This document shows positions 15,574-24,768 of a stretch of DNA of 50,038 nucleotides, in pieces. Within the stretch, counting starts at the first letter, position 1, and each line of letters begins with the position of its first letter. A model generated the notes under the pieces. That model saw only the letters and a list, made by a program, of their open reading frames with translations. It was not told the origin of the DNA and ran no database searches. The position numbers and the translations under genes are program-made. Source of the stretch: an uncultured Alphaproteobacteria bacterium (GTDB taxonomy: Bacteria; Pseudomonadota; Alphaproteobacteria; CAAGCB01; CAG-977); the NCBI GenBank assembly GCA_944393745.1, contig CALYBD010000016.1, positions 1 through 50,038 on the forward strand, written 5' to 3'.

Positions 15574-15662
15574 GAGCTTTAGTCGTATGAAAGAAAACTG
15601 TGGACGAAGTCGGGAAACCGGCATACTCTGGAAATATACAGAGAATGTCCGGAGAGGTTCCC

Positions 15663-16757
15663 ATGCCTGAAACAATTCAATCCGTTTTTGATAATCAAAA
15701 GAATGTTGCCGGTGAATGCCGTCCGCAGAAACCGTCTTATCCTTTCCTGGCCTGGGAAAATCAGGAAGAGCTCGGCCGACTGGAAGATATTCTTAACCAT
15801 CTGCGCCAATCAAAAACAGGCCGCAGCCTGATTGCCGATGCCGAAAAACATCAAACGGTAATCCGATTGGAATCAAATATGCGGGCTTACGGTTCTTATG
15901 ATGAAGTAACCAATAATTTAAAAGTCAATGCCAACAGCGATCTGAACCGGCAAATCGGCACAATGGCTCATGAATTGCGCCATTCCCAGCAGTTCCAAAA
16001 GGGAATCCTGATGGATGCTTATCTGGACAGTCCCAAATGCTATATTCAAAATCAATCCGTTATCGAAGCCGATGCTTCGGCAACCGCTACGGCCGTTTGC
16101 TATGAACTGGCTTTGGCGGGAAATGACAAGCCTCTGGAGGCTTTGCGCGAAAAAGACGCTCATATCGTTAATCCGTTCCAAAATCAAGCCGTTAAAAACG
16201 GAAAAATTGACGAATCGGCTTATCAGGCCGCTTTTAAAGGCTGGTTTACGGATTATTCGACGCGTGACTGCTATGATATCCTGTATATAAAAATGGTTCG
16301 TCAGCGTTTTAAAAACTGTACCCGGGAAGAAGAAAACAAAAAATTCGAACGCGATGTCCCCGTAAACGATGTCGTTCAAAAGGTCTGTTCCTGTAACGGA
16401 AAACCGTATATGTCCGAACAGGAAACTCAGGCGTTTTTCAGTACGCAAGACGCTTGTTCCGTTTCTTTTGAGCGGTTTAATAATATCTATGGCAATTGCT
16501 GCATGAAATTTAATTTCGATTGGAATAAACCGCAGGAAGAAGTCATGAAAGAAAAATTGGGACTGTATTGTCGCCCGCATTCCGGATATATGCCGGCGAA
16601 AATTGTTCCTCAGCCGCTACCGATTCCAAAAACAGCAGACCGTCAGGCTTCGGCCGCGGAAAAAATAGCGGCAGTCAAAAAACAAAAAACGACGCAAATC
16701 GCGAAAAAAACACAGCTTTCCGCCATGTTAAAGTATAAAGCGGCACGGGAAAAATAA
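15663..16757 (+). CDS. Putative HExxH zinc metallopeptidase (DUF6782-like), at the edge of the phage module
   Basis: A 364-residue protein with a zincin-type site H103-E104-L-R-H107 (TMAHELRHSQQ) and a downstream acidic segment E135-A-D137 that could give the third ligand. This resembles the putative metallopeptidase family DUF6782 (family name from memory). There is no signal peptide. The middle is rich in Cys (C-S-C, C-C pairs, about 265-320) and the last 45 residues form a Lys/Ala/Gln helix. I chose ATG 15663 for its GGAGAGG site 6 nt upstream. It is the first plus-strand gene before the structural module and is separated from it by a promoter and terminator, so it may be a phage or host accessory gene. 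Substrate unknown. Confidence 0.7.
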   Translation: MPETIQSVFDNQKNVAGECRPQKPSYPFLAWENQEELGRLEDILNHLRQSKTGRSLIADAEKHQTVIRLESNMRAYGSYDEVTNNLKVNANSDLNRQIGTMAHELRHSQQFQKGILMDAYLDSPKCYIQNQSVIEADASATATAVCYELALAGNDKPLEALREKDAHIVNPFQNQAVKNGKIDESAYQAAFKGWFTDYSTRDCYDILYIKMVRQRFKNCTREEENKKFERDVPVNDVVQKVCSCNGKPYMSEQETQAFFSTQDACSVSFERFNNIYGNCCMKFNFDWNKPQEEVMKEKLGLYCRPHSGYMPAKIVPQPLPIPKTADRQASAAEKIAAVKKQKTTQIAKKTQLSAMLKYKAAREK

Positions 16758-16774
16758 AAATATAACAAAATGTG

Positions 16775-16803
16775 TTGACATTCTTTAAAACTTATGACAT
16801 ATT
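16775..16803 (+). promoter_or_regulatory. Promoter in front of the phage structural genes
   Basis: TTGACA (16775-16780), 17-nt spacer, CATATT (16798-16803). The predicted start near 16810 gives a leader of about 50 nt that runs straight into the terminator at 16840. Confidence 0.7.
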
Positions 16804-16839
16804 GTTAATACACTTGATTTTGTGTCTTTAAAAACAACA

Positions 16840-16867
16840 GCGTTTCTTTAAAAGAAGCGCTTTTTTT
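16840..16867 (+). terminator. Leader terminator before the phage structural genes
   Basis: A 9-bp stem (GCGTTTCTT at 16840-16848 pairing with AAGAAGCGC at 16852-16860, one G-T pair) with loop TAA, then T7. It lies between the promoter and the first structural gene, as in the pR'-tR' arrangement of lambdoid phages. Confidence 0.8.
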
Positions 16868-16888
16868 ATGTCGATAAAGGAGAAGAAA

Positions 16889-17212
16889 ATGGGGCTGGGG
16901 AAAAGCTTAAAAAAATTGGGCAAAAGAATTGTTTCGGCGGTAAGCGATCCGAAAAACCTGATTAATCCGTTGTTTTCCGTTACGGAATTAGGAGAAGGCG
17001 TTTATAGTGATTATAAAAAATCCGTACAGGAAGATAAAGCGAAAGAAGCAGCCAGGCAACAGGCTGAAATTGATGCATCCAATAAAGCGTTTCAGGAGGA
17101 TTTGGACAGAAAAAGGCGTAATTCGAAAAGGTCTAATGTCATCTTTGCCGGGGTGTTGGGGTCTGATAGAAATGTGGGACTGGGCGGACAAAAAAATCTG
17201 CTGGGGTTGTAA
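16889..17212 (+). CDS. Small phage structural protein preceding the portal
   Basis: A 107-residue basic protein. The N-part (MGLGKSLKKLGKRIVSAVSD) is amphipathic, the middle (about 45-80) is a Lys/Glu/Gln coiled coil, and the end (SNVIFAGVLGS..NLLGL) resembles the short G-L-G...LLG tail seen in small phage proteins next to podovirus portals. I chose ATG 16889 because AAGGAG lies 6 nt upstream; an ATG at 16868 abuts the terminator T-run and lacks a site. Its stop overlaps the portal start (TAATG). It is probably a virion or ejection component, but the function is unknown. Confidence 0.65.
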   Translation: MGLGKSLKKLGKRIVSAVSDPKNLINPLFSVTELGEGVYSDYKKSVQEDKAKEAARQQAEIDASNKAFQEDLDRKRRNSKRSNVIFAGVLGSDRNVGLGGQKNLLGL

Positions 17213-18714
17213 TGATGTCGGATTCATATTCTTTGGCAGATAAAATTATCCGTAAGACAGATGAGCTGAAATCAAAACGGGTTAATTTTGAAAAACTCTG
17301 GCAGGAAATATCGGAATTGGTTTTGCCGCGCAAAGCCGATTTTACCGTAAAGCAGGAACCCGGTGCGAAAAGAACACGAAAATTATATGAAACGACAGCC
17401 GTCAACGCTGCCGAAATTCTGGCGGCGGGACTGCACGGGTTGATGACGAATCCGTCCGGAAAATGGTTTTCTTTGTCTGTTCCGAAATATCAAAATGTGC
17501 CGGAAATCTCTGACTGGGTCGTCAGTGCCGAACAGGTCATCGCCGATGAAATCGGGCGCGCTTGTGCCGGTTTTGCAACGAATATCCACGAAGTCTATCT
17601 GGATCTGGCCGTATTGGGAACGGCCGGGCTGTATGTCGGCTGGAATGAAGAAAACGAAAGTCTATTATTTCAGTCGCGTTTCCCGGGAGAGCTGTTTTTG
17701 GAAGAAAATGCCGCCGGCCAGGTTGACCGGGTATATCGTGTTTTCAAAATGTCTTTGGATCAGATTGTTCAAACGTGGGGGCATAATGTTCTGCCTGAAA
17801 AAATGTTGTCTGATTTTGAAACGGGCAATCAAACAGAACGCGAATATGAAATTATTCATGCCGTTACTCCGAATGTCTTGTATAAAAAAGGCGATGTTTT
17901 TCAAAAACCCGTCAGTTCCGTTTATGTCTTAAAAGAAGAAAGAACGGTTCTTTTTTCCGGCGGATTTGAAGAAATGCCGTTGTTTGTTACGCGCTGGAGC
18001 AAAGCGTGTACGGAAATTTACGGCAGGTCTCCGGCAGCAACGGTGTTGCCGGATATCAAAATGATCCAGGAAATGATGAAAGAAACCATTATTGCCGCTC
18101 AGTTGGCCAACCGGCCGCCTTTGTTGGTCAGAGACGATGATCAGTTCGCGCCGGCCGCAACTGTTCCCGGCGGTATTATCCGATATACGGGAGAAGCACC
18201 GAAAGCTTTTGTCAGCGGTGCCAATTCCGGTGTCGGGCTGGAAATTATGAACGAAATCAGAACCCGGATCAAAACGGCATTTTACAACGATCAGCTGATC
18301 AGTACGGAAAATGTGCAGATGACGGCGACCGAAGTATTGCAGCGTACGGAAGAAAAAATGCGGTTGTTGGGACCGGTGTTCGGACGGCTGCAAACGGAGC
18401 TGCTGGGGCCGATGATGCTGAGAATTTTCGGTTTACTGGTTCGTCACGGTAAAATGATACTGCCCGAGGGGATTTCGTTCGGCGATGTCAAAGTCGAGTA
18501 TGTATCGCCGTTATCTTTGGCGCAAAAGCATTTGCAGGCACGTGCGGTTATGCAGACATTGGAACTGGCTGAAGAATTTCTGAAAATTCAGCCGGAAGCC
18601 GCAAGCGTGTTCAACGGACCCGAAGCAATTCGAAAAATCGGTGAAATGTACGGCGTCAGCAGTTCTTTGTTCAATACATGTGATGAAAGGAAAGAAAATG
18701 ACGGAGAACGCTGA
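17212..18714 (+). CDS. Podovirus portal (head-to-tail connector) protein
   Basis: A 500-residue portal of the head-to-tail connecting family (PF12236), the dodecameric ring through which DNA enters and leaves the capsid. Family features are the opening helix with FEKLWQEISELVLPRKADF, the LAAGLHGLMTNPSGKWFSL segment, YGRSPAATVLPDIKMIQEM and MTATEVLQRTEEKMRLLGP. Length matches the family (about 500-560). It is coupled to the small gene before it (TAATG) and overlaps the next gene by 17 nt. The frame is fully intact. This protein defines the module as derived from a short-tailed phage. Confidence 0.92.
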   Translation: MMSDSYSLADKIIRKTDELKSKRVNFEKLWQEISELVLPRKADFTVKQEPGAKRTRKLYETTAVNAAEILAAGLHGLMTNPSGKWFSLSVPKYQNVPEISDWVVSAEQVIADEIGRACAGFATNIHEVYLDLAVLGTAGLYVGWNEENESLLFQSRFPGELFLEENAAGQVDRVYRVFKMSLDQIVQTWGHNVLPEKMLSDFETGNQTEREYEIIHAVTPNVLYKKGDVFQKPVSSVYVLKEERTVLFSGGFEEMPLFVTRWSKACTEIYGRSPAATVLPDIKMIQEMMKETIIAAQLANRPPLLVRDDDQFAPAATVPGGIIRYTGEAPKAFVSGANSGVGLEIMNEIRTRIKTAFYNDQLISTENVQMTATEVLQRTEEKMRLLGPVFGRLQTELLGPMMLRIFGLLVRHGKMILPEGISFGDVKVEYVSPLSLAQKHLQARAVMQTLELAEEFLKIQPEAASVFNGPEAIRKIGEMYGVSSSLFNTCDERKENDGER

Positions 18715-18991
18715 AAAGAAAAAAATCAGTAAAGCCGTACAGCTGATTCAAGCGTATAAAGCTGTTTTTTTATCTGAAAACGGGCAGGTCGTCCTACGGG
18801 ATCTGGCCGTTAAATGTCATATGTTGTCTTCGGTAACAGACGTATCCAACCCGAACGGATTTTCTGCCGCAAGTGCTTTCTATGACGGTAAACGGGCAGC
18901 TTTTTTGGACATCATAAAAATGTCCGCCTGCGATGAGACAAGGCTTATCGCATTATTGCAAGAAACTGAAAGGAATAAAAATGAACTATGA
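18698..18991 (+). CDS. Bbp19-like small phage protein
   Basis: A 97-residue protein resembling the Bbp19 family found beside portal genes in short-tailed phages: a helix ending in GQVVLRDLAVKCHML, then a segment F-x-x-G-x-R (FYDGKRAAFLDII) and a short acidic helix. AAAGGAAAG precedes ATG 18698, inside the last codons of the portal gene. Role unknown; in phages it is structural or assembly-related. Next gene overlaps its end by 11 nt. Confidence 0.65.
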   Translation: MTENAEKKKISKAVQLIQAYKAVFLSENGQVVLRDLAVKCHMLSSVTDVSNPNGFSAASAFYDGKRAAFLDIIKMSACDETRLIALLQETERNKNEL

Positions 18992-19547
18992 TTTACCTTT
19001 GCCGCAGGAAAATATTTCCGGCGCAATGATTGATGAAATTATTGATGAAGCGGCCTTTGAAGAATTTAAAGAATTGGCTGAAACTTTGCAGCTGTCCGAA
19101 GAACAGGCGCAAGGAATCTGGGATTGGATTGTCGAAGGAGCTTTGCGCTTTGTCGGCGATCTGAACGTATCGGCGCGGGAATACTGCGATGAAACGGAAA
19201 ACCAGCTGCGCAGTCTTTACGGAAACGATTTCGAAGCAAAGCAAAAAGCCGCGCATAACCTGATCATGAAATACGGCGGCGAAGAAATGGCGACCTTTTT
19301 GAAAAAAAGCGGTATCGGAAATTGCCGGGAAATCGTTTCTTTTCTGATTAAGTTGGCTGATGCCGCCGGCGAAGACAGAGGATTGATCGGAGAAAAATCT
19401 TCCGTTTTGTCTTCGGAAGAAAAAATCAAAGCGGAAATTGCCAGATTGATGGCTGTTCCGGCTTATATGCAGGCAAGGCACCCCGAACACGAAGCGACGG
19501 TTCAGCAGGTGTATCGTTTAAGAAAACGTTTGTTCGGCGAAGAATAA
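18981..19547 (+). CDS. Phage scaffolding-like protein
   Basis: A 188-residue acidic, helical protein in the position where podoviruses encode the scaffold that guides capsid assembly, directly before the major capsid gene. It carries a pattern seen in such proteins: an E/Y-x-x-x-x-E-N-x-x-x...YGGEEMATFLKKSGIGNCREIVSFL stretch (a GxGNxPEVxxFL-like motif) at about 95-120. The end (VQQVYRLRKRLFGEE) is basic, as in scaffold tails that bind coat protein. ATG 18981 follows AAAGGA. Function is inferred from order and composition. A terminator follows. Confidence 0.6.
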   Translation: MNYDLPLPQENISGAMIDEIIDEAAFEEFKELAETLQLSEEQAQGIWDWIVEGALRFVGDLNVSAREYCDETENQLRSLYGNDFEAKQKAAHNLIMKYGGEEMATFLKKSGIGNCREIVSFLIKLADAAGEDRGLIGEKSSVLSSEEKIKAEIARLMAVPAYMQARHPEHEATVQQVYRLRKRLFGEE

Positions 19548-19571
19548 CCGTTTTTGAAAACGACGTTAAAT

Positions 19572-19598
19572 GCTCCGTTTTTAAACGGGGCTTTTTTT
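19572..19598 (+). terminator. Intrinsic terminator between scaffold and capsid genes
   Basis: Stem GCTCCGTT / AACGGGGC with one G-T pair and loop TTTA, followed by T7. Confidence 0.75.
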
Positions 19599-19625
19599 AT
19601 AACTGATTAAAAAAAAGAGGAAAAT

Positions 19626-20525
19626 ATGAGCACACAAATTACAACATCTTTCGTCAATCAGTACAGTTCCAATATTCAGGCGCTGGTACAGCAAAAAGGA
19701 TCTAAACTGCGTGATCTGGTCGGCTATGAAAGTGTTCGCGGCAAAAGTATGTTTATTGATCAGATCGGTCAGGTCGCCGCCGTAAAAAAAACGACAAGAC
19801 ATGCCGATACGCCGCAGTCCGATACGCCCCATAAACGTCGTAATTTGAAATTGGAAACATATCATTGGGCTGATTTGATTGATAATGACGACAAAGTCAG
19901 AATGTTGATTGATCCGACCAGCGATTATGCCAATGCCGCAGCTTGGGCAATGGGACGCGCTATTGACGAAGCCATCGTAACGGCGGCTCTGGGATCAGCC
20001 TATACGGGCGAAACAGGGGCAACGGCCGTCAGTCTGCCGGCAACACAGGTCATCGATTCAACGTGTTCGTCAAAGTTTACCTTTGACAAACTGCGTGAAG
20101 TAAAGCGTATGTTTGATAAATGTGATGCCCCCAGCGAAGGTCGCGTGATTGTTTTATCCGCGCAGCAGCTGGACGATTTATTAAGCGAAACAAAAGTAAC
20201 TTCGGCCGATTACGCTTCGGCCAAAGCGTTGGTTCGCGGTGAATTGGATACGTTTATGGGCTTTAAATTTGTTCAGTTGAATGCGAAAAACAGCAGCGGC
20301 GATTTGATTTTGCCGGACGTTACATCAACCGGTGATACCGTTATCGGGCGGTCTTGTCTGGCTTTTCAGTTTGACGGCATCAAACTGGGAATCGGTCAGG
20401 ATATTGTCGGCAAAATTACGGAACGCGACGACAAGTGCTTTGCAACGCAGGTCTATTACGAAATGTCAATCGGTGCCGTGCGTATGCAGGAAGAATTGGT
20501 CGTCCAGATTAATTGCAAAGAATAA
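19626..20525 (+). CDS. Major capsid protein
   Basis: A 299-residue coat protein of the phage capsid family PF19821-like (Phage_capsid_2). Typical traits are the opening with QYSSNIQALVQQKGSKLRDLV, the segment KTTRHADTPQSDTPHKRR...LETYHWADLID followed by a D-x-x-x-x-L segment, WAMGRAIDEAIVTAALGSAYTG, and a C-terminal GAVRMQEELVV strand. It would form the icosahedral shell with the HK97 fold. GAGG lies before the ATG. It stands between two terminators, so its dose can be set apart from the neighbours. The frame is intact, without internal stops. Confidence 0.85.
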   Translation: MSTQITTSFVNQYSSNIQALVQQKGSKLRDLVGYESVRGKSMFIDQIGQVAAVKKTTRHADTPQSDTPHKRRNLKLETYHWADLIDNDDKVRMLIDPTSDYANAAAWAMGRAIDEAIVTAALGSAYTGETGATAVSLPATQVIDSTCSSKFTFDKLREVKRMFDKCDAPSEGRVIVLSAQQLDDLLSETKVTSADYASAKALVRGELDTFMGFKFVQLNAKNSSGDLILPDVTSTGDTVIGRSCLAFQFDGIKLGIGQDIVGKITERDDKCFATQVYYEMSIGAVRMQEELVVQINCKE

Positions 20526-20534
20526 CTTTGTTTT

Positions 20535-20565
20535 AAAAGCGGCAGAATTTCTGCCGCTTTTTTTA
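20535..20565 (+). terminator. Intrinsic terminator after the capsid gene
   Basis: A perfect 11-bp stem (AAAAGCGGCAG / CTGCCGCTTTT) with loop AATTT, followed by T's. Strong. Confidence 0.9.
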
Positions 20566-20584
20566 TTTCTTTAAGGAGAAAAAT

Positions 20585-21142
20585 ATGACTTCCGTTGTTG
20601 CTGTTTGTAACCGGGCTTTGTCTAAAATCGGGGACGAATTGATTATTATGTCCTTGGACGATGACACAAAGCCTGCCCGGTATTGTAAGTCTTTATATGC
20701 CGATACGCGTGATTTTGTGCTCAGGTCTTATCCGTGGCGGTTTGCTTTAAAACGTTATATTCTGGCACCGTTAAAAGATCGTCCCTTGTTCGGGTACGAT
20801 TATCAGTTCGCTTTGCCGTCCGATTGTCTGCGCCTGTGGAAAACAGAAGAAGAACAACGTTATCAGCTTGAAGGACGTTGTATTCTGGCCGATCGGAATA
20901 TATTCGCTTTTATCGGTATTTCCAGAGTTGAAGACGCGACACAATTTGATCCCATGTTCGTTGAAGCTCTTTCTTTGCGTTTGGCGGCTGAATTGGCGGT
21001 GCCTTTAAGCGCTTCCGTTTCTTTGAAAGAAAATCTGACAAAAGAATATCAGCAGTTCGTTCAACAGGCAAAAACAGCATCGGCAATGGAAGGAATCCAG
21101 GATACATATACGCAGTCAGGGTGGGTGGAGGCCAGAATATAA
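20585..21142 (+). CDS. Tail tubular protein A-like (head-tail adaptor)
   Basis: A 185-residue protein like T7 gp11. The opening VVAVCNRALSKIGDELI and the segment FVLRSYPWRFALKRYILAPL, then YDYQFALPSDCLRLW, are hallmarks of this adaptor, which binds the portal and begins the short tail. AAGGAG precedes the ATG. Its stop overlaps the start of the nozzle gene (TAATG), so the two tail proteins are coupled. Confidence 0.85.
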   Translation: MTSVVAVCNRALSKIGDELIIMSLDDDTKPARYCKSLYADTRDFVLRSYPWRFALKRYILAPLKDRPLFGYDYQFALPSDCLRLWKTEEEQRYQLEGRCILADRNIFAFIGISRVEDATQFDPMFVEALSLRLAAELAVPLSASVSLKENLTKEYQQFVQQAKTASAMEGIQDTYTQSGWVEARI

Positions 21143-23145
21143 TGTCATACTCTACTGCTTTGGTTAGGTTTAATACCGGAGAAATTTCCGATTTAATGAG
21201 CGGCCGCATCGATACCGAAGAATATAAAGGAGCCTGCAAAATTTTAAGGAATTTTATTCCTTCGGTTCAAGGGCCTGTTTCCCGGCGCGGCGGGACACGT
21301 TTTATTGCTTCGGCAAAATACCATGATAAAAAGACCCGGCTTTATTCTTTTCAGTTTTCTGCGACACAGTCGTATCTGTTGGAATTCGGTGATCAGTATG
21401 TGCGCATTTTTTATCACCGTCAGCCGATTGTCGATACCAACGGCAATCCGGTAGAAGTTGTTTTGCCGTATACGCAAAATGATCTGGACAGCCTGTATTT
21501 TTCACAGTCCGGAGATGTGGTTTACATTGCTCATCCGTCTTTTCCGTTAAGGACGCTGACCCGTTATTCCCAAACCGACTGGCGAACGGCGGAAGTTCAA
21601 ATGACGGACGGTCCTTATTTGCCGGTTCATACGGGTGATATTACGTTGACACCTTCTGCGGTAAAGGGAAATATTACGATTACGGCTTCTGCCGACGTTT
21701 TTGTTTCAACCGATGTCGGTCGTCATGTCCGGATTATGCACCCGAATAATCCGAATGTGCAGTGGGGTGCGGCAAAAATTACGGGAGTTACCGGTCCGCG
21801 CAGTGTCAGTGCGACCGTGTTTGATGATTTTCCGTTTTTAAATACGACAGCTTCGAAAGCCTGGCGACTGGGCGTTTTTTCCGCCACAACGGGGTATCCC
21901 GCCGTCGTTACTTTTTTTGAACAAAGATTAATTTTGGCAAAAGGGAACGGTGTCTACGGATCAAAAACGGGACAATATGAGATTTTTTCGCCGACTTCGG
22001 CTTCTGCTGGCGTAACGTCACAGTACGGATACGGTTATGAACTGTCCTCGGATCAGATTAATGATGTGTGTTGGCTGTCTTCGGGCAGAGTTCTGGCGAT
22101 CGGAACGCTCGGCGCTGATTTTACTTTGGAAACCGCCGGCGGTGAAGGAACCATTCCGATGAGCGTTAAAGCCCAGCGGCATTCGACTTACGGCAGTGAA
22201 TCCGTCGCGCCGGTAAAAGTAGGCAGTACGACGTTGTTTGTTCAGCGATACGGCAGAAAATTACGCGCTTTTATGTATGACAGCAATTCCGACGGCTATA
22301 TTGCCAAAGATCTGACGACACTGGCGGCGCATATCACGTACAGCGGCATAAAAGAAATGGCTTTGCAGCAGGAGCCTGTTCCTGTTGTCTGGTGCGCACT
22401 GAAAAACGGAGCGCTGGCCGGATTGACCTATGAATCCGCCGAATCTGTCGAAGCCTGGCATTCTCACGAACTGTCCGGCGCTTTTGTGGAAAGCATTGCA
22501 ACTTTACCGGCACAAAACGGCGGACATGATGAATTGTTTTTGCTGGTTCAGCGGCAGATTAATGGCGAGACAAAACGTTATATCGAAGTCATGGAAAAAG
22601 GTATTGAAGAAGAGGCCGCAGGAACCGAAGAATGCTTTTTTGTCGACAGCGGATTATCGTACCACGGGGAACAGGTTTCTCAGCTGGCAGGACTGGATCA
22701 TCTGGAAGGCGAAACCGTCGCCATTTTGGCAGACGGTGCCGTTCAGACGGAAAAAGTCGTTCAAAACGGCATGATCAGTCTGGATACGCCGGCCGCAATC
22801 GTTCATGTCGGTCTGCCTTTTACGTCTGTTTTGCAGACAATGCCTTTGGCCGCAATCGGTCATGACGGCATCAGCGAATGTTCAACAAAGCGTGTTTCCG
22901 GTTTGTTGTTGCGTCTGTATAAAACTTTGGGATTTTCTGTCGGATCCTCTGAACATATTGAAAAACAAAGTTTTCGCAGCTCCAGCGATCCGATGAACGC
23001 CCCGCCGGCCTTGTTTACGGGGGACAAAAAAGTTTCGTTTTGCGCGCAATGGGAACGGCTGGCCGATATTCGTATTGAACAAACTCAGCCGTTGCCTTTG
23101 ACGATTTTGGGTATTTTCCCGCTGGTATCAACTTACAGGATTTAA
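21142..23145 (+). CDS. Tail tubular protein B-like (tail nozzle)
   Basis: A 667-residue protein like T7 gp12. The N-terminus has the usual LVRFNTGEISDLMSGRIDTEEY, FIPSVQGPVSRRGGTRFI and FQFSATQSYLLEFGDQYVRI, and the middle has beta-propeller-like repeats with TFFEQRLILAKG. The last third is the most divergent and contains a Ser-rich stretch. The protein forms the nozzle of the stubby tail. No separate tail-fibre gene follows, so the host-binding part is either in this C-terminal region or elsewhere in the genome. Confidence 0.85.
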   Translation: MSYSTALVRFNTGEISDLMSGRIDTEEYKGACKILRNFIPSVQGPVSRRGGTRFIASAKYHDKKTRLYSFQFSATQSYLLEFGDQYVRIFYHRQPIVDTNGNPVEVVLPYTQNDLDSLYFSQSGDVVYIAHPSFPLRTLTRYSQTDWRTAEVQMTDGPYLPVHTGDITLTPSAVKGNITITASADVFVSTDVGRHVRIMHPNNPNVQWGAAKITGVTGPRSVSATVFDDFPFLNTTASKAWRLGVFSATTGYPAVVTFFEQRLILAKGNGVYGSKTGQYEIFSPTSASAGVTSQYGYGYELSSDQINDVCWLSSGRVLAIGTLGADFTLETAGGEGTIPMSVKAQRHSTYGSESVAPVKVGSTTLFVQRYGRKLRAFMYDSNSDGYIAKDLTTLAAHITYSGIKEMALQQEPVPVVWCALKNGALAGLTYESAESVEAWHSHELSGAFVESIATLPAQNGGHDELFLLVQRQINGETKRYIEVMEKGIEEEAAGTEECFFVDSGLSYHGEQVSQLAGLDHLEGETVAILADGAVQTEKVVQNGMISLDTPAAIVHVGLPFTSVLQTMPLAAIGHDGISECSTKRVSGLLLRLYKTLGFSVGSSEHIEKQSFRSSSDPMNAPPALFTGDKKVSFCAQWERLADIRIEQTQPLPLTILGIFPLVSTYRI

Positions 23146-23157
23146 GGAGAATTGAAT

Positions 23158-23568
23158 ATGAGCAAAAAGGGCTTTTCAACGTTAATGAACAGTGCAAAAA
23201 ACACGTTTAATCTGCTGAAAGAATGGCAGGATTCAAAAAATACGGAAAAAGACTATTACCTGCAGGCACACAATACAATCAGGCAAAGTCGTGACGAAAC
23301 AGAACAGTTAAAACGTAAAAACAAAGAAGAAAGAGGAACGGCCATCGCAAAAGCCGGCGCTTCGGGAATCAATGTGTCCTCGTTTAATGATGCGCTGCTG
23401 TATAATGATCTGAAAACGGCACGCGAAGTCTATGACAAAGAACAAAACGCCCGTCAGCAGGCCGCCGGCTTGCGTCGTCAGGCCGCCAACGAACGCAGAA
23501 ACAGAAAAAGTAAGGCTTTTTCTTATACCGTCGGATTACTGTCGGATTTCGGCAGTTTCGGCAATTAA
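23158..23568 (+). CDS. Phage internal virion-like protein
   Basis: A 136-residue basic coiled-coil protein. It begins MSKKGFSTLMNSAKNTFNLL and has a long helix (about 30-60), then a GASGINVSSFNDALLYNDLKTAREVYDKE segment split here by a loop; similar segments are seen in small internal proteins that phages eject with DNA. The C-terminus ends in a short hydrophobic stretch (YTVGLLSDFGSFG). AAGGAG precedes ATG 23158. It is much smaller than the internal proteins of T7 (gp14-gp16), so the ejection machinery is reduced. Function inferred from order. Confidence 0.55.
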   Translation: MSKKGFSTLMNSAKNTFNLLKEWQDSKNTEKDYYLQAHNTIRQSRDETEQLKRKNKEERGTAIAKAGASGINVSSFNDALLYNDLKTAREVYDKEQNARQQAAGLRRQAANERRNRKSKAFSYTVGLLSDFGSFGN

Positions 23569-23587
23569 CTTTTAAAGGAGAGCCGTT

Positions 23588-23752
23588 ATGGGAAACGTCA
23601 AAGAGGGCGTTACAATTTCTGCCGGACTGACCGCACCGGCCTGGTTGCCGGTTTTTAACGAATGGGTCGGTTGTTTAATCGGTATCGCCACGCTGTTGTA
23701 TATCTGCGTGAAAATTTATGTCCTGTTGTCGCGTTCGGGAGCCGCCGAATGA
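23588..23752 (+). CDS. Holin-like protein
   Basis: A 54-residue membrane protein that opens the lysis cassette. One hydrophobic span (about 27-47, WVGCLIGIATLLYICVKIYV) follows a polar N-terminus with Gly/Pro (GLTAPAWLP), and the end is short and mildly basic. AAAGGAG precedes the ATG. Its TGA overlaps the ATG of the endolysin gene (ATGA), the usual holin-endolysin pairing. Holins form holes in the inner membrane and so time lysis. The gene was too short for standard gene length cut-offs. Confidence 0.75.
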   Translation: MGNVKEGVTISAGLTAPAWLPVFNEWVGCLIGIATLLYICVKIYVLLSRSGAAE

Positions 23753-24207
23753 TCTCTGAAAAAGGAATAGAATTCATCAAGGGATTTGAAGGCTTTGCGC
23801 CGCTGGAATATACGTGTGTCGCCGGGAAAAGAACAATCGGTTACGGTCATGTGTTGGGGCCTGAAGAAAAGTATGTCTGCGGTGTTTGTGAACGCGAAGC
23901 AGAAAAGCTGTTAAAACATGATCTGAACATTGCCGAACAGGCCGTTGACAATCTGGTCGATGTGCCGTTATCGGAAAATCAAAAAGATGCTTTGGTCAGT
24001 TTTATCTTTAATATCGGTGTCAGAGCTTTTTCAAAATCCACGCTGTTAAAAAAACTCAATGAAGGAGAGTATGAACAAGTACCCAAGCAACTACAGCGTT
24101 GGATATATGTCAATGGGCGCCCCTGCGGCGGGTTGATCCGTCGCAGGCGAGCTGAAGCCGCTTTATTTACAAAATCGGCGGGACGGAAACGTCCCGTTTT
24201 TTTATGA
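23749..24207 (+). CDS. Endolysin, GH24 lysozyme with Glu-Cys-Thr triad
   Basis: A 152-residue muramidase of glycoside hydrolase family 24 (T4/R21-like). Catalytic E14 is followed by x8, then C23 where most members have Asp, then x5 and T29 before IGYGH. The T4 D20C mutant is known to keep activity, and natural Glu-Cys-Thr lysozymes exist. The C-terminus reads GRPCGGLIRRRRAEAALF, the family motif. ATG 23749 is coupled to the holin. No signal-anchor, so release should need the holin. The last codons and stop overlap a terminator hairpin. Confidence 0.9.
   Translation: MISEKGIEFIKGFEGFAPLEYTCVAGKRTIGYGHVLGPEEKYVCGVCEREAEKLLKHDLNIAEQAVDNLVDVPLSENQKDALVSFIFNIGVRAFSKSTLLKKLNEGEYEQVPKQLQRWIYVNGRPCGGLIRRRRAEAALFTKSAGRKRPVFL
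24179..24203 (+). terminator. Intrinsic terminator overlapping the endolysin 3' end
   Basis: A 7-bp stem (CGGGACG / CGTCCCG) with a GAAA tetraloop, followed by T7. The hairpin is inside the last codons of the endolysin gene. Confidence 0.85.
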
Positions 24208-24218
24208 AAGGAAAAAAT

Positions 24219-24434
24219 ATGAATTTGGAAAACATGATTGTTTTTTTGGAACAGGCCGTTTTTTGGTTTGGAACCGTTGTCGCGGCAGCCTCCGTGATTA
24301 TCAAGGCTACCCCGACGCAAAAAGACGATACAATTCTGGCAAAGGTTGTTAAAGTGTTGGATTTGGTCTCTATTGTAAACGCAAAGATTCAGGAAAACAA
24401 AACGTCGGAATCAAAAGAAGAAAATGTTGTCTGA
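24219..24434 (+). CDS. Second small membrane protein of the lysis cassette
   Basis: A 71-residue protein with one membrane span (about 8-30, FLEQAVFWFGTVVAAASVIIKA) and a cytoplasmic helix with TPTQKDDTILAKVVKVLDLV. This TPTxKDD-type motif recurs in phage holin or antiholin-like proteins. Start ATG 24219 follows AAAGGA; the upstream ATG 24204 lies in the terminator tail. It may be an antiholin or a second holin. It overlaps the next gene by 11 nt. Confidence 0.65.
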   Translation: MNLENMIVFLEQAVFWFGTVVAAASVIIKATPTQKDDTILAKVVKVLDLVSIVNAKIQENKTSESKEENVV

Positions 24435-24633
24435 AGGCAGTGTTTTTATAGTTTTTGGCGGTGTATTTTTTGTTTTTTTGTCGTCTTTTTTGGCATATAA
24501 GCTTGGAAAAAATCAGGAAAAAATCGATCGTGAAAACAAACGATCTCAAATGCTGGCCGACATCCGTTCTGTGCGCAGTCGTCTTGACGATACTGATGTT
24601 GTTGAACGGTTGCACGATACGTTTAAACGGTGA
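24424..24633 (+). CDS. Candidate i-spanin (Rz-like)
   Basis: A 69-residue protein with an N-terminal membrane anchor (about 7-25, VFIVFGGVFFVFLSSFLA) and a short charged coiled coil (KLGKNQEKIDRENKRSQML..). This is the layout of inner-membrane spanins that span the periplasm, though far shorter than lambda Rz (about 150). A lipoprotein gene lies embedded in another frame, as in Rz/Rz1. AAGAAG precedes the ATG. A lysis function is inferred from order. Confidence 0.6.
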   Translation: MLSEGSVFIVFGGVFFVFLSSFLAYKLGKNQEKIDRENKRSQMLADIRSVRSRLDDTDVVERLHDTFKR

Positions 24634-24739
24634 ATTTTGTGATCTGTATCTGCCGGTTTATCCCGATTATGAAAAAGATACGCCGGAAACAATCAGACAG
24701 ATTGACCAAAACAATATCGTTTATTTAAAATGTTTATAA
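24530..24739 (+). CDS. Candidate o-spanin lipoprotein (Rz1-like), overlapping frame
   Basis: A 69-residue lipoprotein in a second frame overlapping the i-spanin gene by 104 nt. GTG 24530 gives a fine signal sequence (KTNDLKCW, then VLCAVVLTILMLLNGC) with lipobox L-N-G-C. The mature part (CTIRLNGEFCDLYLP..YPDYEKDTPETIRQIDQNN) has the DTPETxRQIxxNN motif common in phage o-spanins and small phage lipoproteins. AGGAAAAAA lies about 9-11 nt before the GTG. A longer frame from ATG 24455 lacks the signal and is less likely. A terminator follows 1 nt after the stop. Confidence 0.7.
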   Translation: MKTNDLKCWPTSVLCAVVLTILMLLNGCTIRLNGEFCDLYLPVYPDYEKDTPETIRQIDQNNIVYLKCL

Positions 24740-24740
24740 A

Positions 24741-24768
24741 AAGCAGCCCGTAACGGGCTGCTTTTTTT
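24741..24768 (+). terminator. Intrinsic terminator closing the phage module
   Basis: A perfect 10-bp stem (AAGCAGCCCG / CGGGCTGCTT) with loop TAA, followed by T's. Strong. Confidence 0.92.

What the first reader, a model, noticed from the sequence alone, without database searches (positions are those of the whole stretch)
15663..24768. Compact podovirus-like particle and lysis module without terminase, integrase, repressor or tail fibre
Seen: an unbroken series of open frames for portal, Bbp19-like, scaffold-like, capsid, two tail-tube proteins, an internal protein and a five-gene lysis set, about 8 kb, between ordinary host genes (tgt and Sel1/dsbD). Known: functional phages need a terminase, and prophages usually have integration and control genes. 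Inference: intact frames despite missing essentials suggest selection, as for a gene transfer agent, a satellite using a helper's terminase, or a domesticated particle; a recently trimmed prophage is the plain alternative.
Basis: partly seen in the sequence, partly recalled or inferred. Interest (0 to 1): 0.78.

Follow-up and report, generated by a model that had tools for sequence, protein, structure and literature searches.

The report
Dispersed podovirus-like gene transfer agent
A group of rumen bacteria has kept a virus-like particle for a long evolutionary time: its shell, DNA-packaging motor and variable tail fibres are coded at separate places in the chromosome, share one type of genetic switch and are under strong selection, so it is probably a new device for passing the cell's own DNA to relatives.

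Summary
The gene series is real, but 'without terminase or tail fibre' is true only of this locus. A solo terminase large subunit, a probable small subunit and one to four solo tail-fibre genes lie elsewhere in the same genome. All sit behind the promoter found at window 16762-16806 (TTGAC-N13..19-ACAWWWTGTK). At the head module, TerL and fibre genes an intrinsic terminator follows just before the start codon. In the window's genome 6 of 8 promoter-pattern hits lie at these genes; the reversed control gives 0. The head/tail/lysis module sits at the same tgt / sel1-dsbD site in 6 of 7 same-genus genomes and beside tgt in two genomes of a sister genus. TerL is in 10 of 12 family genomes. The one genome with no capsid or TerL also has no fibre. 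Capsid dN/dS is about 0.04, TerL about 0.06, as low as tgt, atpB and acrB. No capsid above 57% identity was found among viral contigs. Best reading: a vertically inherited, dispersed, co-regulated gene transfer agent (GTA) of podoviral descent, apparently separate from known GTA lineages. Fibres have a conserved anchor, unrelated tips, and usually lie beside surface-glycan genes, suggesting kin-targeted delivery. DNA packaging and transfer are inferred, not shown.

The parts
16762..16806 (+). Module promoter: operator ATAACAAAATGTGTT (16762-16776), then TTGACA (-35) and ACATATTGTT overlapping the -10 (16775-16806); same element as at TerL, TerS and fibre genes
   Evidence: (0.03 expected by chance in window)
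16839..16861 (+). Promoter-proximal intrinsic-terminator hairpin followed by a T run, directly before the first gene; present in 7 of 7 orthologous leaders
16889..17212 (+). Small conserved protein (107 aa) preceding portal, function unknown; same position as small proteins before portal in related prophages
   Evidence: syntenic orthologues in 7 further genomes
17212..18714 (+). Portal protein (head-tail connector, PF12236)
   Evidence: dN/dS about 0.09
18698..18991 (+). Bbp19-like protein (start codon uncertain)
   Evidence: PF25181
18981..19547 (+). Scaffold-like protein
   Evidence: phrog_3742; position before capsid
19572..19591 (+). Intrinsic-terminator-like hairpin before capsid, also seen before capsid in two congeners
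19626..20525 (+). Major capsid protein (PF19821)
   Evidence: dN/dS about 0.04
20535..20561 (+). Intrinsic-terminator-like hairpin after capsid
20585..21142 (+). Tail tubular protein A (phrog_394)
21142..23145 (+). Tail tubular protein B / nozzle (phrog_376)
23158..23568 (+). gp14-like internal virion protein
   Evidence: PF24072, phrog_418
23588..23752 (+). Small membrane protein, probable holin (54 aa)
   Evidence: sequence and position only; no family match
23749..24207 (+). Lysozyme-type endolysin with E-8-C-5-T arrangement (KGFEGFAPLEYTCVAGKRT)
   Evidence: (PF00959), sequence
24177..24198 (+). Intrinsic-terminator-like hairpin at the end of the endolysin gene
24219..24434 (+). Small membrane protein (phrog_9685), possibly second holin
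24424..24633 (+). Probable inner-membrane spanin (N-terminal membrane segment plus coiled coil)
   Evidence: sequence, position nested with the outer spanin frame
24455..24739 (+). Outer-membrane spanin-like lipoprotein (Rz-like, phrog_1275), nested out of frame; true start inside this frame
   Evidence: E 2.5e-4
15600..16757 (+). DUF6782 putative metallopeptidase; upstream of the module promoter, absent at this site in G005 and G006; neighbour, probably not part of the module

Best explanation
The locus is the head, tail-tube and lysis operon of a podovirus-derived gene transfer agent whose genes are dispersed over the host chromosome. Shown by sequence: (1) the operon is at one fixed site, intact and under strong purifying selection; (2) a solo terminase large subunit, a probable small subunit without a recognisable helix-turn-helix, and several solo tail-fibre genes (usually followed by a small probable tail-assembly chaperone gene) stand at other conserved or glycan-linked sites; (3) these genes share one promoter/operator element, and module, TerL and fibre genes also an early intrinsic terminator. 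Inferred mechanism: a host-controlled regulator recognises the palindrome ACAWWWTGT at the promoter and also lets RNA polymerase read through the leader and intra-operon terminators, as GafZ does for the Caulobacter GTA, so all parts are made together in a few cells. The capsid is built on portal and scaffold and filled with host DNA by the solo TerL (ATPase and nuclease motifs intact) with little sequence choice. The short tail gets one of several fibres. Holin, endolysin and spanins burst the cell. Fibres bind surface glycans of sibling cells and deliver the DNA. Packaging, release and delivery are inferred; the regulator is not identified.
For: Vertical, fixed, selected: same tgt / sel1-dsbD site in G000, G001, G002, G004, G005, G006 (in G004 split over two contigs); tgt side in G007 and G011; capsid 89-92% identical in genus, 83-84% in sister genera; dN/dS capsid 0.040, TerL 0.060, portal 0.087 against tgt 0.050, atpB 0.047, acrB 0.061 (dS saturated); host topology not rejected by the module genes (AU p = 0.30). 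Terminase in trans: solo TerL 83-90% in genus and 76-80% in sister genera, in the same host context between a TRL-like lipoprotein and an RND pump, present in 10 of 12 family genomes; Walker A (HRRAGKDS) and C-terminal nuclease-type motifs kept in full-length copies; 57% identical to TerL of the G010 prophage, whose capsid is also the closest prophage relative. TerS candidate: conserved, GTA promoter, best phage matches annotated 'terminase small subunit' (E 3e-3). Fibres: T7-type N-terminus, 69% mean identity over the first 140 aa but 21% in the tips, PF16778 chaperone next door in the case tested, absent in G009, which also lacks capsid and TerL. Common regulon: promoter pattern hits GTA genes at 29 of 43 places in 12 genomes (my count), reversed control 12 hits, and 0 of 3 in the two genomes without the system; operator alone in G000: module, TerL, TerS, 4 fibres, one small gene and one other place, control 2. 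Early terminator: g1 7/7, TerL 6/9 by a strict rule, nearly all fibres.
Against: No particle, packaged DNA or transfer has been observed. Large gp15/gp16-type ejection proteins of related prophages were not found outside prophages, bar one 370-aa piece in G001, so the DNA-delivery step lacks a known part. The TerS assignment rests on weak similarity; no Pfam or PHROG match. The short TerL+TerS alignment mildly rejects the host topology (AU p = 0.016). No GafA/GafY/GafZ search was run. G008 has an altered capsid neighbourhood and G003 lacks the module in its assembly.
Confidence: 0.82

Rival explanations
1. A recently trimmed, dying prophage that happens to have open frames.
For: Locus lacks integrase, repressor, replication and terminase genes; related prophages exist in some genomes (G000:C60, G001:C8, G010:C54).
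Against: Same insertion site and intact genes across species and a sister genus with synonymous saturation; dN/dS 0.04-0.25; co-regulated solo TerL and fibres conserved separately. No complete phage of this lineage at this site in any relative; nothing above 57% capsid identity among 2.9 million viral contigs.
Confidence: 0.03
2. A satellite (PICI-like) that parasitises a helper phage for packaging.
For: No terminase in the locus itself.
Against: It codes its own capsid, tail and lysis genes; no integrase or mobility; fixed location; host carries a dedicated co-regulated TerL in 10 of 12 family genomes.
Confidence: 0.01
3. A domesticated particle with another job, such as a short-tailed bacteriocin-like killer, a lysis or biofilm-DNA device, or a capsid that interferes with phages, not DNA transfer.
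For: Ejection proteins gp15/gp16 are missing; variable fibres beside glycan loci would also suit a killer of relatives; lysis genes look complete.
Against: Strong conservation of TerL, portal and capsid, needed together only if DNA is packaged; dispersed layout and terminator-studded operon match known GTAs (PMC9662315, PMC11150451). Tailocins keep tails and lose heads and terminase (general knowledge).
Confidence: 0.12
4. A member of a known GTA family (Rhodogtaviriformidae, Bartogtaviriformidae, or the FpGTA kind) rather than an independent lineage.
For: Alphaproteobacterial host as for RcGTA; podovirus-like parts and two-locus layout as for FpGTA (PMC12946183).
Against: Portal, capsid and tail genes belong to T7/HTVC010P-like podovirus families, not a siphovirus set; FpGTA is in Gram-positive Faecalibacterium and keeps TerL and portal in one operon. 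No direct sequence comparison with RcGTA, BaGTA or FpGTA proteins was made here.
Confidence: 0.02

Closest known systems
FpGTA of Faecalibacterium prausnitzii (PMC12946183, 2026)
   Same: Podovirus-like head/tail genes, at least two dispersed loci, fibre and lysis genes, terminase retained, all tested Faecalibacterium genomes carry locus I; [quoted passage not shown]
   Different: Gram-positive host; TerS, TerL, portal and capsid in one operon; fibre with lysis in a second. Here TerL, TerS and each fibre stand alone, fibres are multiple and variable, and one promoter type marks all loci. Particles shown for FpGTA, not here.
RcGTA (Rhodobacter capsulatus) and CcGTA (Caulobacter)
   Same: Alphaproteobacterial host, dispersed loci, vertical inheritance, TerS without a DNA-binding domain (PMC6854486), capsule-binding fibres (PMC10218006), promoter palindrome and terminator read-through control in CcGTA (PMC11150451).
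   Different: Siphovirus-like set with terminase in the main cluster (general knowledge); the CcGTA GafZ site lies between -35 and -10, here the palindrome overlaps the -10; no GafA/Y/Z homologue was searched for here.
HTVC010P-like pelagiphages and related podoviruses
   Same: Closest isolated-phage capsid (52-53% identity over full length); T7-type portal, tail tubes and gp14.
   Different: Those are complete phages; here ejection gp15/gp16, replication and integration genes are absent and the particle genes are chromosomal and dispersed.
Prophage in G010 contig C54 (L040, L140)
   Same: Capsid 55%, TerL 57%, fibre N-terminus 44% identical: nearest virus seen for several separate parts at once.
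   Different: Contiguous prophage with terminase, decoration-like protein, gp15/gp16, long fibre and a reverse transcriptase-like gene; no GTA promoter upstream of its fibre.

Membership tests
Gene transfer agent (definition of PMC9662315) | Caudoviricete-derived proteins able to form a particle | tested here: met
   portal, scaffold, capsid, tail tubes, gp14-like, TerL, fibre: (protein similarity; no images)
Gene transfer agent (definition of PMC9662315) | Genome fully endogenised, often across multiple loci | tested here: met
   module, TerL, TerS and 1-4 fibre loci at separate host sites:
Gene transfer agent (definition of PMC9662315) | Mostly vertical inheritance and co-diversification with host | tested here: met
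   conserved synteny in two genera; module genes do not reject the host tree, AU p 0.30; TerL+TerS alone p 0.016, so support is not uniform
Gene transfer agent (definition of PMC9662315) | Packages mostly random host DNA | not testable with these tools
   needs DNase-protected DNA from particles
Gene transfer agent (definition of PMC9662315) | Cannot package its whole genome | not testable with these tools
   head size unknown; loci are far apart, which makes full packaging implausible (inference)
Gene transfer agent (definition of PMC9662315) | DNA delivered to other cells | not testable with these tools
   no culture or transfer data; gp15/gp16 ejection proteins not found
Prophage | Contiguous genome with integration/control/replication genes | tested here: not met
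   module flanked by host genes tgt and sel1/dsbD; none of these genes between them
Phage satellite (PICI-like) | Mobile element with integrase that takes structural proteins from a helper | tested here: not met
   own structural genes, no integrase, fixed site
Rhodogtaviriformidae (RcGTA type) | RcGTA-homologous structural cluster | not tested
   families found are podoviral; no RcGTA sequence was compared directly
GafA/GafYZ-controlled GTA | GafY/GafZ regulators | not tested
   only the analogous promoter palindrome and terminators were seen

The most novel reading that the evidence does not exclude
An independent GTA lineage with a repertoire of interchangeable, scattered tail-fibre cassettes, each placed beside a surface-glycan biosynthesis locus and driven by the common GTA promoter, so that fibre specificity tracks the glycan types of the bacterium's own population: a genetically built-in, kin-directed DNA-exchange system.
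Probability: 0.45. Interest if true: 0.92.

Novelty: new variant of a known kind. Interest (0 to 1): 0.85.

Why it matters
Few GTA lineages are known and, by PMC12946183, only one podovirus-like. This would be a further independent domestication, in uncultured rumen/gut Alphaproteobacteria, with terminase and fibres cut loose from the particle operon, which prophage finders would miss. The shared promoter plus early terminator gives a search key for whole dispersed systems, and fibre cassettes beside glycan loci make the open question of why GTAs persist, and whom they target, directly testable.

Tried and rejected
Pfam Terminase_6N found no terminase in the window's genome; phrog_2 and phrog_38 did. 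TerL in G000:C25 belongs to a Mu-like prophage and TerL in G000:C60 to a podovirus-like prophage; both set aside. DUF6782 was considered as part of the module and dropped (upstream of promoter, missing at the site in two congeners, paralogue elsewhere). Several operator-only hits in other genomes lie inside coding genes and were taken as chance. The 1,253-residue piece of the related prophage's gp16-like protein gave no match in G002-G008 and G011. Profile of the TerS candidate against frames of viral contigs in hand: no hit; no similarity to a small protein next to another phage's TerL.
Full report
OBSERVATION. Pfam and PHROGs identify portal, Bbp19-like, scaffold-like, capsid, tail tubes A and B, a gp14-like internal protein and a phage lysozyme; the last frames include a spanin-like protein. 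The module proper starts with a promoter at 16762-16806 and a small gene at 16889, and ends at 24739. The DUF6782 peptidase at 15600-16757 lies upstream of that promoter, is missing at this site in two congeners and has a paralogue elsewhere.

FIXED AND SELECTED. The window is a whole contig of a 2.25-Mb alphaproteobacterial genome. Named relatives are uncultured Alphaproteobacteria/Rhodospirillales assemblies, several from rumen. The capsid is 89-92% identical in five congeners and 83-84% in three genomes of two other genera of the family; the portal is 77-81% in the genus. The neighbourhood atpB-atpI-dsbA-DUF721-tgt / module / sel1-dsbD is the same in six genomes of the genus, and the tgt side also in G007 and G011; in G004 the two halves are on two contigs that break inside tail tube B. 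dN/dS (Nei-Gojobori, synonymous sites saturated) is 0.040 for capsid, 0.087 portal, 0.086 and 0.095 tail tubes, against 0.050 tgt, 0.047 atpB, 0.171 dsbD. The module alignment does not reject the host tree (AU p = 0.30); the short TerL+TerS alignment does weakly (p = 0.016). G003 lacks module and dsbD in its assembly, probably a gap; G009 lacks the system; G010 has only a related prophage; in G008 the genes around the capsid are altered.

THE MISSING PARTS ARE ELSEWHERE. A broad terminase profile rings in 11 of 12 family genomes. One class is a lone TerL in the same host context, between a TRL-like lipoprotein gene and an RND pump, with no other phage gene beside it; it is found in all seven genomes of the genus and in G007, G008 and G011. 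Its ATPase and nuclease motifs are conserved by eye. It is 57% identical to the TerL of the G010 prophage, which also carries the closest prophage capsid (55%), so module and TerL probably come from one phage lineage. About 7 kb away, next to rlmJ, lies a conserved 107-aa protein; two of its four weak phage matches are annotated 'terminase small subunit' (E 3e-3). It shows no helix-turn-helix family match, as reported for RcGTA TerS (PMC6854486).

FIBRES. A T7 fibre profile finds solo genes of about 300 aa. With their own N-terminus as query there are four intact in the window's genome, and one to four in every other genome that has the solo TerL; none in G009; only the prophage one in G010. 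The first 140 residues are 69% identical on average, the rest 21%. Next to most lies a small gene; the one tested is PF16778, phage tail assembly chaperone. In 12 of 14 cassettes examined a surface-glycan enzyme (glycosyltransferase 2 or 8, NeuB, capsule synthesis, sugar acyltransferase, CDP-glycerol transferase, cytidylyltransferase) lies within about 4 kb, usually convergent. No background rate was computed, so this association is an observation, not a statistic.

ONE SWITCH. Upstream of module, TerL, TerS and fibres lies the same element: TTGAC, 13-19 bases, then the palindrome ACAWWWTGT at the -10. The pattern occurs once in the window against 0.03 expected. Genome-wide it has 8 hits in G000, six of them at these genes and one at a new 77-aa gene; reversed control 0. 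Over 12 genomes 29 of 43 hits are at these genes by my count, control 12 hits in all. The palindrome alone in G000 marks module, TerL, TerS, four fibres, the 77-aa gene and one other place. In module, TerL and fibre leaders a hairpin plus T run follows directly before the start codon: 7 of 7, 6 of 9 by a strict rule, and nearly all fibres; the TerS leader has none. 25 of 144 control leaders pass the same rule, several of them GTA genes themselves and many with weak hairpins. Further terminator-like hairpins flank the capsid gene and end the endolysin gene. This recalls Caulobacter, where GafZ binds a promoter palindrome and lets RNA polymerase pass terminators in the GTA cluster (PMC11150451). 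Homology of regulators was not tested.

NO FREE PHAGE. The best capsid among isolated phages is 53% (HTVC010P-like pelagiphages) and among 2.9 million viral contigs 57%; TerL 52% and 56%. The large ejection protein of the related prophage is found only in genomes with prophages, so the particle either delivers DNA without gp15/gp16 or uses an unrecognised part. This is the main gap in the model.

INTERPRETATION. Of the six features that define GTAs (PMC9662315), three were tested and met (phage-derived proteins, endogenised at multiple loci, vertical inheritance); three need experiments (random host DNA, incomplete self-packaging, delivery). It works like a GTA by the genomic criteria available; formal membership waits for particles. 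Closest in kind is FpGTA (PMC12946183), from which it differs in host, gene layout, stand-alone terminase and multiple fibres. I found no paper describing such an element in rumen Alphaproteobacteria in the held library. A capsule receptor for GTA fibres is known in RcGTA (PMC10218006), which supports the kin-targeting idea by analogy only.

Noticed in passing
G000:C20, L244:7090-7323 (-); also L247:4023-4252 and L249 near 739-998: A small gene (77 aa, no family) carries the same GTA promoter but no leader terminator; 51% identical in G004, same nusB/glyA neighbourhood. Possible further regulon member.
   Followed up: partly
L244:8914-9315 (-), L247:2255-2680 (+): An XRE/Cro-type helix-turn-helix regulator lies about 2 kb from that small gene in two genomes; candidate regulator of the operator, untested.
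   Followed up: no
L112 (G000:C25:4500-24000): A Mu-like prophage with its own terminase and portal in the same genome.
   Followed up: no
L042 (G000:C60) and L043 (G001:C8:68000-87900): Podovirus-like prophages with TerS, TerL, decoration-like protein and very large (about 1,900-aa) internal proteins; distant (34-38%) from the module capsid.
   Followed up: partly
L140:4428-8698 (G010:C54): Prophage in a genome that has no GTA: a long tail fibre is followed by a reverse transcriptase-like gene, as in a diversity-generating retroelement.
   Followed up: no
L039:1235-2773 (G008:C58): In G008 a 512-aa membrane protein sits between scaffold and capsid, and tail tube A does not follow the capsid: rearranged or decaying copy.
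   Followed up: no
window 15600-16757: DUF6782 putative metallopeptidase family with paralogues in this bacterial family, one at the module's edge.
   Followed up: partly
G001:C11:223-256 (-): GTA-type promoter and terminator leader pointing off a contig end; probably another fibre gene cut by assembly.
   Followed up: no
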